Shown one piece after another: positions 24,813 through 27,767 of a stretch of DNA of 64,000 bases (position 1 is the stretch's first letter; each line of letters starts with the position of its first letter). The position numbers and the translations under genes were made by a program. The DNA comes from Marinicella marina (GTDB lineage Bacteria; Pseudomonadota; Gammaproteobacteria; Xanthomonadales; Marinicellaceae): contig NZ_JASJNC010000006.1 of NCBI RefSeq assembly GCF_030065545.1, positions 62,001 through 126,000 of the forward strand. The letters run 5' to 3'. A model generated the notes under the pieces. The model searched no databases. It saw only the letters and a program-made list of their open reading frames with translations, and was not told the DNA's origin.

Positions 24813-25088
24813 ATGAACATACCTAAGTTTGAAGATTTTCAAAACAACCTCAACAGCAAGTGTCGCATTGAGTTTTCTGAGGATTGCCACCAAGAGTGTG
24901 AAATCACTGAAGTGAATCAATCAGCAGCCAATGATCAGTTTTCAGTGATATTCTCACAAGCAAACCCACAAATACAGCCTCAGGGTGTGTATCGCGTCAA
25001 GCATGAAGCACTGGGTACCTTAGACATTTTTATGGTGCCAGTTTCTGGTGATGATGAGGCGGTTAATTATGAGGCGGTTTTTACCTGA
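24813..25088 (+). CDS. Small protein resembling DUF6916
   Basis: A 91-residue acidic protein without signal peptide or membrane segment. Its second half (FSVIFSQANPQ, then QGVYRVKHEALGTLDIFMVPV, then YEAVF) has the pattern I associate with the DUF6916 family, often found beside phage-tail-collar genes; the name is from memory and should be verified. The protein at 25617-25964 shows the same pattern. Three cysteines lie in the N-terminal third. GGAG five bases before ATG 24813 decides the start over GTG 24798. It converges on the GNAT gene of the collar operon with an 11-base gap. Confidence 0.65.
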   Translation: MNIPKFEDFQNNLNSKCRIEFSEDCHQECEITEVNQSAANDQFSVIFSQANPQIQPQGVYRVKHEALGTLDIFMVPVSGDDEAVNYEAVFT

Positions 25089-25099
25089 GCACGGTTGCT

Positions 25100-25624
25100 T
25101 CACTCAGTTGGTTTTGGGTGCCATTCTAAATATTGATAAACCCCTTTGTCCTCCATTTGTTTGAATCCATGACGAACATACCACTGATAGGCTGGATTGA
25201 AATTTTCAACATGAATAACAATCTTTTTTTGCGTCAATTGGGCTTCATCAATCAGTTCTTTTAACAGCTGTGTACCTAATCCGTTTCCTCGGTGGTTGCT
25301 CAGTATTGAGACATCAATCAAACAAATCGACACATCGTCTCGATCTAGGTAAATTCTGCCAATGGCTTCATCATTAAGTTTGATGACAAGTTTCTCTGCC
25401 TTGGGATAATGTTTTAGGTAGTGGTCATGTTGTGCCAGAAATTGTTGCTGCAAGAAATCCTTGCGCTGTTGGTCAGTCCAAGGCGCTTGTAAAACTTCTT
25501 GCCAGCGGGTGCTGCGATACAAATCAGATAAAAAGCCCATGTCATCTTCTGACACAGGCTTGAATTGAACTTGAGTTGTTATGTGTTTGGTTTGGCCATT
25601 AAACGCCAGCCAAGCATCAGCCAT
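25100..25624 (-). CDS. GNAT-family N-acetyltransferase
   Basis: The 174-residue product has the GNAT fold: beta strands EKLVIKLNDEAIGRIYL and VSICLIDVSIL, then the acetyl-CoA loop NHRGNGLGTQLL (R-x-x-G-x-G type), then IVIHVENFNPAYQWYVRHGF. It is the last gene of the collar-domain operon and overlaps the preceding gene by eight bases, so it is surely cotranscribed and perhaps translationally coupled. The substrate is unknown; modification of one of the neighbouring proteins is possible but only suggested by position. Confidence 0.85.
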   Translation of the reverse strand: MADAWLAFNGQTKHITTQVQFKPVSEDDMGFLSDLYRSTRWQEVLQAPWTDQQRKDFLQQQFLAQHDHYLKHYPKAEKLVIKLNDEAIGRIYLDRDDVSICLIDVSILSNHRGNGLGTQLLKELIDEAQLTQKKIVIHVENFNPAYQWYVRHGFKQMEDKGVYQYLEWHPKPTE

Positions 25625-25964
25625 AAGTGCGCCAATTGAAATTTGCTTGTAATTGTTGTGGTGAAACCGGTTTCATGTGAATTTGATGCTTTTTACCAGC
25701 TTCATCAATTAAATGATAGATTTTTTCATCCAATTGCTCGGGAGGATTATTTACCTCAAAAGTGAGGATGAATTGTTTATCATCTGGCTTGATGGTGGCA
25801 TGATCGCGGCTTTTCAAAACCAAGTTCAAACCATCATCTGAGCGCATTTTCATGCCTTTTTGATACTTTTCACAACGGTTTTTTGTTTTCGCTACCAGCG
25901 GCCCTACGGCCAATGAAACGCCAACTGTACCTATGGCTGCTTGGGTGAAATTTCTTCTGTTCAT
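25617..25964 (-). CDS. Small protein with possible Tat signal, DUF6916-like
   Basis: A 115-residue product starting MNRRNFTQAAIGTVGVSLAVG, which looks like a twin-arginine signal (RR-N-F-T) with a short hydrophobic core. The mature part (FILTFEVNNPPEQLDEKIYHL, GKKHQIHMKPVS, LQANFNW) follows the same residue pattern as the protein at 24813-25088, suggesting a shared domain. AGGAG six bases before the start decides ATG 25964 over an upstream extension. It begins one base after the third collar gene and overlaps the GNAT gene by eight bases. The function is unknown. Confidence 0.7.
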   Translation of the reverse strand: MNRRNFTQAAIGTVGVSLAVGPLVAKTKNRCEKYQKGMKMRSDDGLNLVLKSRDHATIKPDDKQFILTFEVNNPPEQLDEKIYHLIDEAGKKHQIHMKPVSPQQLQANFNWRTYG

Positions 25965-25965
25965 A

Positions 25966-26478
25966 TCAACTCCTGGAAGGGTACAGGCCCACCAATGCAA
26001 TGATGTAATTGATTGCAATGTATGGCTGCATGTTGTTGTGAGGTTGGCTGCCGCCTTGAGGTCCTATCGCATCTGTTGACATAGCAACTAAACCACCGCC
26101 GTCGTTATAAATTTCTTTGTTGGCCAAGAACTGCTCGTCTGGATTGGTTTCCATACCTTCGTTGTCATTTTCAACCACCACAGTGTGGTTGTGTTGTGGT
26201 ATTTGTGCTTCGGTGAGGGTGACTTCGGTAACACCGCCTCGCTCACCCAAGCGCCGATCAGTCAAGCCTGGCCCCCGGCCTGGGTGCATGGCAGCCCGGC
26301 CTTGTAAATCTGGCAGTGCCGTGGTGGTCCTGCCATCGCCACCATAAATGGTGCCAATCAAAGAGAATAAAGCCGTGTTCTGGGCTATGGGTAACAACTG
26401 GCCGTTGCAAAATGCCCAGCCTCTGGGAGCGAAGTTACCAGCGAAAATTCTTATTTCTGCTATAAATGGTTCTGACAT
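25966..26478 (-). CDS. Phage-tail-collar domain protein (MdpB-like), third in tandem
   Basis: A 170-residue protein of the Tail Collar family (as in phage tail fibres and the microcystin-related MdpB). It begins MSEPFIAEIRIFAGNFAPRGWAF, continues CNGQLLPI, then LIGTIYGGDGRTTTALPDLQGR, a variable middle, and ends NNMQPYIAINYIIALVGLYPSR. The collar core is near residues 5-60. No signal peptide is visible. AAGGAG precedes the ATG. This family occurs widely on bacterial chromosomes outside prophages, often as three tandem copies; its function there is not established. Confidence 0.88.
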   Translation of the reverse strand: MSEPFIAEIRIFAGNFAPRGWAFCNGQLLPIAQNTALFSLIGTIYGGDGRTTTALPDLQGRAAMHPGRGPGLTDRRLGERGGVTEVTLTEAQIPQHNHTVVVENDNEGMETNPDEQFLANKEIYNDGGGLVAMSTDAIGPQGGSQPHNNMQPYIAINYIIALVGLYPSRS

Positions 26479-26489
26479 GTGCTATCTCC

Positions 26490-27008
26490 TTACTGTCTGG
26501 ACGGGTAAATACCAACCAATGCAATGATGTAATTGATACATAAAAATGGCATGATGTTGGTGTGACTTTGCGAACCACCGGTGTTTGATAGGCTGCTGCT
26601 GTTCATTTGACTTGGGTTATCTAGCTCATCGGTGTAGATGTCCTCACTCGATTCAGCCAGCTTATTACCTAATGGGTTGGCGTTATCACCACCCGTTGTT
26701 GTGGCGTTGATGGCATGTCGGTGAGAAGGCAGCTGATTGACTGTTAGGGTAACGTTTTCGGCACCGGCTTTTGCACCCAATCGACGGTTGCTGAGTCCTG
26801 GCCCTTGACCGGCGTGCAGGGACAACCTGCCCCGCATATCGGGTAAACCGAATGTGGTTCTTCCATCACCACCATAGATGGTGCCTAGTAAACTGAATAA
26901 AGCATCATTTTGAGAAACTGCCAATAGCTGACCGTCACAAAACGCCCAACCTCGAGGTGCAAAGTTTCCCGCAAACATCCTGATTTCTCCAACAAATGGT
27001 TCTGACAT
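26490..27008 (-). CDS. Phage-tail-collar domain protein (MdpB-like), second in tandem
   Basis: A 172-residue paralogue of its neighbours, starting MSEPFVGEIRMFAGNFAPRGW, with AFCDGQLLAVSQND, LLGTIYGGDGRTTFGLPDMRGR, and the closing INYIIALVGIYPSR. The middle (about residues 80-140) is Asn/Ser/Thr-rich and differs most among the three copies, as expected for a variable surface. AGGAG lies six bases before the start. It is 9-11 bases from both neighbours, so the three are one transcription unit. Confidence 0.88.
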   Translation of the reverse strand: MSEPFVGEIRMFAGNFAPRGWAFCDGQLLAVSQNDALFSLLGTIYGGDGRTTFGLPDMRGRLSLHAGQGPGLSNRRLGAKAGAENVTLTVNQLPSHRHAINATTTGGDNANPLGNKLAESSEDIYTDELDNPSQMNSSSLSNTGGSQSHTNIMPFLCINYIIALVGIYPSRQ

Positions 27009-27017
27009 ATTACGCTC

Positions 27018-27518
27018 CTAATTTCTTGATGGGAAAAGACCCTGTAAAGCAATACAATAATTCACTGCAATAAAAGGTTGCATGTTTTCATGGGCCTGGC
27101 CGCCGCCTGCATTACTCATCGAAGCAGCACCCAACGCAGCATTGGCTGTGGTGTTAGAGTAATTTTCATCGGGGGATTGTGCCAGGTAATTGCCAGCGCC
27201 TTCTGCTTCAACGGCATCATCGCTGCTGCCTGTCAAGTTGTGTTGGTGCTGTGGCATCTCGCTGGTATTGAGGGTATGGGTCTCTTCGCCTGACTTTGAA
27301 CCTTGACTGTACCCCGGCCCGACATGAACCGGTGCTCTGCCACGAATGTCTGGTAGTGCAAATGAAGTTCTGCCATCGCCGCCATAGACGGTACCCAGCA
27401 GAGAGTAAAGTGATTGGTTTTGGTTGATGGGCAGGATCTGTCCATCACAAAAAGCCCAGCCCCTCGGGGCAAAGTTAAAACCAACCATGCGAATTTCAGC
27501 CAAAAATGGTTCTGACAT
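27018..27518 (-). CDS. Phage-tail-collar domain protein (MdpB-like), first in tandem
   Basis: A 166-residue paralogue, first gene of the operon. It starts MSEPFLAEIRMVGFNFAPRGW, has CDGQILPINQNQSL, GTVYGGDGRTSFALPDIRGR, and ends INYIIALQ-like with VNYCIALQGLFPSR. An in-frame extension upstream (to 27635) exists, but the conserved MSEPF start at 27518 has AGGAG seven bases before it, so that start is chosen. A sigma-70 promoter sits about 120 bases upstream. Confidence 0.88.
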   Translation of the reverse strand: MSEPFLAEIRMVGFNFAPRGWAFCDGQILPINQNQSLYSLLGTVYGGDGRTSFALPDIRGRAPVHVGPGYSQGSKSGEETHTLNTSEMPQHQHNLTGSSDDAVEAEGAGNYLAQSPDENYSNTTANAALGAASMSNAGGGQAHENMQPFIAVNYCIALQGLFPSRN

Positions 27519-27640
27519 CGAAATACTCCTGTAGTTGTTGGCAATCAGCCAGTCTTTAAATAAATGTAGGGAGAAATGGCATCGAGTTGGCACTAAGAAT
27601 GTAATACTCAATGTTGAACCCCCCATCAACATCACAAAAT

Positions 27641-27669
27641 ATTATGACTGAATTTTTATTAAATGTCCA
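27641..27669 (-). promoter_or_regulatory. Sigma-70 promoter of the collar-domain operon
   Basis: On the minus strand TGGACA (27664-27669), a 17-base spacer and CATAAT (27641-27646), each matching five of six consensus bases. The 5' leader would be about 115 bases. A perfect TATAAT for the other direction (27689-27694) lies close by and may serve lolA, though it lacks a good -35. Confidence 0.6.
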
Positions 27670-27767
27670 GCCTTGTACAAAAGTTAAGTATAATTAGAAG
27701 ATGAGGTGCTGCTACAAAGCCGCAATAAATAAAATTATTTAGCTCAAATTCAGTTTGATTGAGTAAA

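What the first reader, a model, noticed from the sequence alone, without database searches (positions are those of the whole stretch)
24813..27669. Chromosomal collar-domain operon inserted between ftsK and lolA
Three tandem phage-tail-collar (MdpB-like) genes, a small protein with a possible Tat signal and a GNAT acetyltransferase form a compact minus-strand operon (gaps of 9, 11 and 1 base, then an 8-base overlap) behind a promoter TGGACA-N17-CATAAT, with a related small gene converging from the other side. No other phage gene is present. The collar cores are conserved and the middles differ, as for a surface-exposed multi-protein assembly. The block interrupts ftsK-lolA-rarA-crcB, genes that are often adjacent. 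The GNAT may modify an operon product. This is the best candidate here for an undescribed system.
Basis: partly seen in the sequence, partly recalled or inferred. Interest (0 to 1): 0.7.

Follow-up and report, generated by a model that had tools for sequence, protein, structure and literature searches.

The report
Three-part phage-tail-tip surface gene module
A set of bacterial genes made of three different copies of a virus tail-tip protein, an acetylating enzyme and two small barrel-type proteins sits in this ordinary chromosome and recurs, nearly always with one of each of the three copies and usually near a giant secreted protein, in very distant bacteria, which points to an undescribed cell-surface apparatus rather than a leftover virus.

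Summary
In detail: three collar genes (PF07484), a twin-arginine small gene and a GNAT gene, with a converging DUF6916 gene; the Tat gene is a sub-threshold DUF6916 match. Of 49 collar loci (of 79) with enough flank, 48 have exactly three collars (one has six), 49 the GNAT, 41 DUF6916, 42 a >1000-aa same-strand ORF. A tree of 242 collars shows three ancient paralogue lines; 80 of 81 loci (77 of 78 distinct) hold one of each, as do 32 of 33 held-out three-gene loci outside the virus collection, but only 2 of 5 viral-labelled contigs. In 61 relatives collar, DUF6916 and GNAT come and go together. Listed phage collars are distant (best-ranked 36.5% identity). Most relatives tested carry a giant Ig/beta-helix secreted protein beside ColA; this genome lacks it. 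Best reading: a chromosomal surface-display module with an A:B:C collar assembly, probably a heterotrimer, modified by the GNAT. Trimer, acetylation and export are inferred; the Tat statistics are weak (p=0.09). No paper on the module was found in the searched library, which holds no preprints and few subscription papers.

The parts
27018..27518 (-). ColA: stand-alone phage tail collar-domain protein, 166 aa, paralogue line A
   Evidence: PF07484 97.3 bits; clade A, support 0.992
26490..27008 (-). ColB: collar-domain protein, 172 aa, paralogue line B
   Evidence: PF07484 102.8 bits; remaining line B in the tree
25966..26478 (-). ColC: collar-domain protein, 170 aa, paralogue line C
   Evidence: PF07484 97.4 bits; clade C, support 0.753
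25617..25964 (-). Small protein with twin-arginine signal (MNRRNF...), DUF6916-like mature part, 115 aa
   Evidence: PF21880 24.6 bits, below cut-off 27; RR motif in same-genus orthologues; TatC present in the genome
25100..25624 (-). GNAT acetyltransferase, 174 aa, of a subfamily tied to collar loci
   Evidence: PF00583 44.6 bits; matches in 34 of 61 genomes, of which only G009 has no Collar match, its contig ending at the locus
24813..25088 (+). DUF6916 protein without signal, 91 aa, converging on the operon
   Evidence: PF21880 71.1 bits; predicted six-strand beta structure, pLDDT 93
27641..27669 (-). sigma-70-like promoter TGGACA-N17-CATAAT upstream of ColA
   Evidence: 10 of 12 matches; number of such sites not above shuffles
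27519..27758 (.). Spacer between ColA and lolA; the place where six same-genus genomes carry the giant Ig/beta-helix gene
   Evidence: Maps; giant N-terminal profile scores only 21-23 bits in this genome

Best explanation
A non-viral, chromosomally inherited surface-display module. SHOWN: three ancient collar paralogues (A, B, C) are kept together one-of-each, with a dedicated GNAT, DUF6916 protein(s) and, in most relatives tested, an adjacent giant secreted Ig/cadherin-repeat plus beta-helix-like protein. INFERRED: A, B and C assemble 1:1:1, most likely as a heterotrimer with the interleaved fold of phage tail-fibre tips, the invariant H-x-H motifs of the three chains meeting at a metal site, and the variable middle forming the outward binding surface. 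The GNAT, weakly RimI-like, modifies the collars, perhaps at their M-[SA]-[EDQ]-P-[FY] N termini. DUF6916 acts as an assembly factor; where a Tat-signal DUF6916 is present, as here, it may carry the signal-less folded collars across the inner membrane. The giant protein is the stalk or anchor that displays them, making an adhesion or recognition fibre. In this genome the stalk gene is gone, so the collars use another scaffold or the system is decaying.
For: Co-occurrence in loci picked by collar similarity alone: of 49 of 79 loci with >=5 kb on both sides, 48 have exactly 3 collars (1 has 6), GNAT 49, DUF6916 41, >1000-aa same-strand ORF 42; background 465 kb held 0 GNAT and 1 DUF6916. One-each rule: 80 of 81 loci in the tree, 77 of 78 after removing three entered twice, the exception cut by a contig end; 32 of 33 held-out three-gene loci outside the virus collection; six-gene loci L100 ABCABC and L171 BACBAC. 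H-x-H in 242 of 242 collars, aligned with tail fibre 8kec. Relatives: collar x DUF6916 and collar x GNAT each [[33,2],[1,25]], p about 1e-13. Giant C-terminal profile: 49 ORFs in 49 loci (40 distinct places), all within 1 kb of collars. Giant N-terminal domain strong in 15 of 18 collar genomes tested (6 of the 15 gave rows to the profile), 0 of 6 collar-less. Anchors differ by phylum: SLH-like repeats in Paenibacillus, T9SS-like C termini in Bacteroidota (by eye), IPTL-CTERM by Pfam. Residue 2 of the collars is Ala or Ser in 220 of 228 matched, of 238. In Spirosoma oryzicola a formyltransferase stands where the GNAT is otherwise found, as if some acyl transfer were needed.
Against: Collars have no evident signal peptide and most loci lack a Tat-signal partner: 18 of 79 loci by a strict script, and 18 of 377 in-cluster genes against 6 of 283 distant ones is not significant (p=0.09; 0.26 without four Marinicella-family loci). 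The ColA monomer model failed (pLDDT 53), so there is no structural support for the trimer. No collar-GNAT or collar-DUF6916 fusion was found. This genome, G036 and G055 lack the giant's N-terminal domain. Loci that break the one-each rule: L045, L065, L077, L158, the first half of L132, and viral-labelled L169, L170, L172, L173, mostly with small margins (L077 and L173 may be incomplete); L194 has a single collar and no GNAT. L188 has the trio but neither GNAT nor DUF6916 was found. Two DUF6916 genomes of the class sample (G126, G185) have only one collar match. The 79 loci are the best-scoring of at least 588.
Confidence: 0.5

Rival explanations
1. Three separate homotrimeric binders: each collar forms its own homotrimer with its own target, and the operon is a set of three specificities on one scaffold.
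For: Relatives of the domain with solved structures are phage tail fibres with chain numbers divisible by three (8kec 18 chains, 9qgo 3 chains); variable middles in all three lines.
Against: A set of independent binders should gain and lose members, yet 80 of 81 loci keep exactly one A, B and C, even when the order is shuffled (BAC, BCA, CBA, CAB), and sets duplicate whole (L100, L171).
Confidence: 0.25
2. Cytosolic system: collars, GNAT and DUF6916 work inside the cell and the giant secreted neighbour is a separate passenger.
For: No signal on most DUF6916 proteins and none evident on the collars (N termini); this genome keeps the module without the giant.
Against: Giants lie beside collars in widely separated phyla and, in loci L026-L164, the C-terminal profile hits nothing elsewhere; Tat-signal genes of different families recur in the same slot.
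Confidence: 0.17
3. Prophage, tailocin or injection-system remnant.
For: The collar domain is a phage tail domain; 7 of 18 viral-labelled contigs carry two or more collars scoring over 180 bits, three of them with the GNAT, and one of these near an integrase; recombinase genes near two of 12 plasmid loci.
Against: In 749 phage records no best place reaches 60% identity and the best-ranked is 36.5% over 92%; no DUF6916 match in phage records at E<=0.01 with the window protein as query; no capsid, terminase, sheath, tube or baseplate gene annotated in 12 plasmid stretches, whose gene tables are incomplete.
Confidence: 0.05

Closest known systems
Phage tail-fibre tip (collar domain PF07484; PDB 8kec, 9qgo, T4 gp12 1ocy)
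   Same: Same Pfam domain well above cut-off; H-x-H motif aligned with 8kec; 1ocy only at E 0.27
   Different: Stand-alone proteins of about 165-175 aa in three fixed paralogue lines, with GNAT and DUF6916, outside phages
RhiB of the Rhizobium rhiABC(D) operon (passages of PMC13133039 and PMC6969944 seen; Cubo 1992 not held)
   Same: Bacterial, non-phage collar protein (COG4675), linked to plant interaction
   Different: One collar with RhiA and RhiC, quorum-sensing genes beside it; no A/B/C trio, GNAT or DUF6916 mentioned in the passages seen
Fibrillar adhesins with Ig/cadherin repeats
   Same: The giant neighbour in relatives has a signal-like N terminus (by eye), Big_9 and cadherin repeats
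   Different: Here tied to a signal-less collar trio; the giant is absent from this genome
Tail collar paralogue group of Solibacter usitatus (PMC3174227, passages seen)
   Different: Treated there only as paralogues; no module mentioned in the passages seen

Membership tests
Phage Tail Collar family (PF07484) | Score above Pfam gathering cut-off | tested here: met
   97-103 bits against 24
Phage Tail Collar family (PF07484) | Homotrimeric interleaved fold (recalled) | not testable with these tools
   Monomer model failed, pLDDT 53; no multimer prediction offered
Prophage, tailocin or contractile injection system | Tail tube, baseplate, sheath or capsid genes beside the collars | tested here: not met
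   Window neighbours are housekeeping genes by Pfam; none annotated in 12 plasmid stretches; gene tables there are incomplete
rhiABC operon | Single collar gene with rhiA, rhiC and luxI/luxR-type genes | tested here: not met
   Three collars with GNAT and DUF6916; definition from passages; no sequence comparison with RhiA or RhiC was made
DUF6916 (PF21880) | Score above gathering cut-off, converging gene | tested here: met
   71.1 bits against 27
DUF6916 (PF21880) | Score above gathering cut-off, Tat-type gene | tested here: inconclusive
   24.6 bits against 27; second DUF6916 genes of some same-genus genomes pass, such as G003 at 34 bits
GNAT acetyltransferase | Pfam GNAT score and acetyl-CoA motif R-x-x-G-x-G | tested here: met
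   PF00583 44.6 bits; RGNGLG in the sequence (motif recalled)
RimI-type N-terminal acetyltransferase | Score above NCBIfam cut-off | tested here: not met
   TIGR01575 31.4 bits against 86.4
Tat substrate | Twin-arginine motif with hydrophobic stretch and a Tat translocon in the genome | tested here: met
   MNRRNFTQAAIGTVGVSLAVGPLVA by eye; TatC E 1.3e-66; export itself not tested
Fibrillar adhesin system | Large secreted repeat protein at the locus | tested here: not met
   Absent from this genome, best 23 bits, while 15 of 18 collar genomes tested have the giant's N-terminal domain
Anti-phage defence system | Match to PADLOC models | tested here: not met
   0 matches for 6 proteins at E<=0.01

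The most novel reading that the evidence does not exclude
A pan-bacterial surface organelle built on a phage-tail-tip fold turned into an obligate A:B:C heterotrimer: three collar paralogues that arose once and spread through many phyla, N-terminally acylated by a dedicated enzyme (usually the GNAT, once a formyltransferase), folded with DUF6916 in the cytosol, exported already folded (in some lineages by riding on a Tat-signal partner), and mounted on a giant phylum-specific anchored stalk.
Probability: 0.25. Interest if true: 0.87.

Novelty: categorically new. Interest (0 to 1): 0.72.

Why it matters
Records annotate these genes as 'tail fiber protein', GNAT and 'hypothetical protein' (for example), so a module present from Marinicella to Rhizobium, Deinococcus, Paenibacillus, Flavobacterium, Acidobacteriota and Actinomycetota reads as phage debris. 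The one-each rule makes a sharp, cheap prediction (a mixed complex of three collars), gives DUF6916 a context, and suggests that a viral receptor-binding fold has become a fixed part of bacterial surfaces. Detection of COG4675 proteins in a soil metaproteome (PMC5579227, passages seen) may partly reflect it.

Tried and rejected
Prophage remnant: judged unlikely. Defence system: no PADLOC hit. Fold of DUF6916: confident model, but no Foldseek match at E<=0.001 in PDB or BFVD; weak PilZ-like resemblance not used. ColA structure: failed model, not searched further. Fusion genes as evidence for GNAT-collar contact: none; the long ORFs looked like out-of-frame upstream extensions. Tat enrichment: a looser script suggested it (24 in-cluster hits in 23 loci, some spurious, against 15 distant), a stricter one gave p=0.09, so it is only suggestive. 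Searching this genome with the giant's C-terminal half was not a fair test: a single sequence found nothing, and with a profile four same-genus or same-family genomes that carry a giant scored nothing or only 19.5 bits; the N-terminal profile replaced it. A first pattern for giant N termini found nothing and was replaced. Paper searches: DUF6916 in 0 of the 21 papers listed; microcystin-dependent protein in 3; phage tail collar with twin-arginine 0; two of tail collar, IPTL-CTERM, DUF4347, exosortase 0; COG4675 and related terms 3; rhi genes 6; some searches were swamped by unrelated papers.
Full report
WHAT IS THERE. Pfam names the collars PF07484 (97-103 bits), the converging gene DUF6916 (71 bits) and, just below cut-off, the Tat-type gene DUF6916 as well (24.6 against 27). 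No other Collar or DUF6916 match at E<=0.001 exists in the genome. The host genus is probably Marinicella: same-genus contigs G011:C22 and G003:C9 have the lengths of, and share sequence with, records of M. gelatinilytica and M. meishanensis.

CO-OCCURRENCE IN RELATIVES. In 61 genomes (own plus 60), Collar is found in 35, DUF6916 in 34 and this GNAT in 34. Collar against DUF6916 and Collar against GNAT both give 33 / 2 / 1 / 25. The four mismatching genomes are G008, G009 and G031, whose loci lie on contigs that end nearby (the GNAT match in G008 is weak, 28% identity, on another contig), and G053, whose single collar lies in a 511-aa frame and so looks phage-type. In the class sample (232 genomes, own included), 24 have a Collar match and 7 DUF6916. 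All 7 DUF6916 genomes have collars, but G126 and G185 only one match each, in G185 on another contig. All 5 genomes with three or more collars in separate genes (G000, G129, G214, G270, G284) have DUF6916, and none of the 17 collar genomes without DUF6916 has three separate collar genes (my reading).

CO-OCCURRENCE ACROSS PHYLA. These were chosen by collar similarity only. Of all 79, 74 have three collars, 76 the GNAT, 61 DUF6916 and 51 a >1000-aa same-strand ORF within 5 kb, many being cut by contig ends; of the 49 with at least 5 kb on both sides the figures are 48 (one has six), 49, 41 and 42, all three partners in 38. The distant background (465 kb) held 0 GNAT and 1 DUF6916. The profiles were seeded on loci L026-L045; four of the 79 loci (L087, L096, L102, L159) come from the same genomes as seeds. 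DUF6916 counts are lower bounds: Pfam finds one in L164 that my profile missed. The >1000-aa count takes any long frame, related or not.

PLASMID COPIES. In the plasmid collection 72 records match ColB; 34 of the 40 listed have three places. I looked at 12 of the 40, chosen for spread. Eleven have three adjacent collars, one (Aliiroseovarius, L194) a single collar without GNAT. Of the eleven, nine have the GNAT; in Spirosoma oryzicola (L193) a formyltransferase stands in that place and in Tateyamaria (L188) neither was found. DUF6916 was found in seven of the eleven (L165, L167, L187, L189-L192). PLSDB gene tables are incomplete.

THE ONE-EACH RULE. A FastTree tree of 242 collars from 81 loci has clade A (81 members, support 0.992), clade C (80, support 0.753) and the rest B. 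Eighty of 81 loci contain exactly one A, one B and one C; three loci entered twice (L028/L102, L042/L159, L035/L096), so 77 of 78 distinct. The exception, L101, is cut at its contig end. The script dropped loci without exactly three collars (five of the 79: L100, L115, L124, L132, L158) and collars under 140 aa. Order is ABC in 69, BAC in 9, BCA in 1, CBA in 1. Since clades were picked as those best fitting gene position, the order-shuffled loci are the fairest witnesses, and all 11 complete ones keep one of each. Profiles of the three lines were then applied to loci outside the tree. Leaving out second copies of the same genome and the virus collection, 25 of 26 three-gene loci have one of each (L045 does not, my count), and so do all 7 three-gene plasmid loci added afterwards, three of them in shuffled orders (CAB, BAC, CBA): 32 of 33. 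Margins are small in some (down to 4 bits in L191-L193). Of five three-gene viral-labelled contigs, two (L174, L175) keep the rule and three (L169, L170, L172) do not. L100 reads ABCABC and L171 BACBAC; the first half of L132 does not fit. L065, L077, L158 and L173, with two collars each, show BB, CC, BB and CC. H-x-H occurs in all 242 collars of the tree.

THE GIANT. In relatives the gene beside ColA, where read whole, encodes 1686-3489 aa: a signal-like N terminus, a conserved domain (VxxDxDNNxxTGC), an IPTL-like hydrophobic hairpin, DGQ-x-DW, then Ig/cadherin repeats (Big_9, Cadherin_5) and a beta-helix-like C terminus judged by eye; in G043 it is split into two frames. A C-terminal profile, seeded on nine giants, hits 49 ORFs in 49 loci, which are 40 distinct places, each within 1 kb of the collars, 33 of them among the 79 loci. 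Among 24 genomes tested with the N-terminal profile, 15 of 18 collar genomes score 124-304 bits (six of them gave rows to the profile), 0 of 6 collar-less genomes do, and this genome scores 23 bits; G036 and G055 also lack it. All nine other same-genus collar genomes tested have it; five same-genus collar genomes were not tested. Since the window is continuous from ColA to lolA, the gene is missing from that place here.

THE SMALL PROTEINS. DUF6916 is predicted with confidence as a six-strand beta structure (pLDDT 93), without a recognisable relative. Tat-signal genes occupy the slot next to the collars in several phyla and belong to different families: DUF6916, a periplasmic binding protein, PhoX, and unnamed 215-280-aa proteins. 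The enrichment over distant genes is not significant by a strict script (18 of 377 against 6 of 283, p=0.09), although four of the six distant hits look by eye like ordinary membrane proteins.

MECHANISM. The conserved trio plus dedicated GNAT and DUF6916 is shown; the heterotrimer, its metal site, N-terminal acylation, Tat piggyback and stalk display are inferred as set out in the best explanation. The N-terminal idea rests on residue 2 being Ala or Ser in 220 of the 228 collars that matched the pattern (10 of 238 did not match), on weak GNAT similarity to RimI (31 bits, cut-off 86) and to a solved N-terminal acetyltransferase (E 1.3e-4), and on the single formyltransferase replacement.

KNOWN OR NOT. 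I found no paper on the module in the searches named under Tried and rejected; the library holds no preprints and few subscription journals. Nearest in print are RhiB, collar paralogues in Solibacter and metaproteomic detections, all seen as passages only.

Noticed in passing
L133 giant residues 191-216; L112, L138, L151 giants: An IPTL-CTERM-like sorting motif lies inside the giant protein, after about 190 residues, followed by a second hydrophobic stretch, as if one gene encoded two separately sorted surface proteins (Pfam 18.3 bits in L133, cut-off 20.8; the others by eye).
   Followed up: partly
L193 10128-11081: Spirosoma oryzicola plasmid: the trio is followed by a formyltransferase (PF00551, PF02911) instead of the GNAT, then a cellulose-binding-domain giant and an integrase.
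   Followed up: partly
L106 6937-8628, L149 7175-8785: Tat-exported phosphatase PhoX next to the collar module in two Bacillota.
   Followed up: no
L165 10126-11343, L121 11584-12888: Related 405-434-aa proteins without an evident signal sit between ColC and GNAT in Ruegeria and Mesorhizobium; the L121 one is FG-GAP/tectonin-like by weak Pfam match.
   Followed up: partly
L175 (IMGVR_UViG_3300011146_000028): A contig classed as viral carries the ABC trio, GNAT and a DUF4347/fn3/IPTL-CTERM giant near an integrase and an APS kinase; it may be a genomic island misread as a virus because of its 'tail' genes.
   Followed up: partly
L169, L170, L172: Viral-labelled contigs with three near-equal collars (183-206 aa) that fit none of the three lines clearly; possible sister or ancestral type.
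   Followed up: no
G016 contigs C84 and C15; G050 contig C20: Extra strong matches to the giant N-terminal domain away from the collar locus.
   Followed up: no
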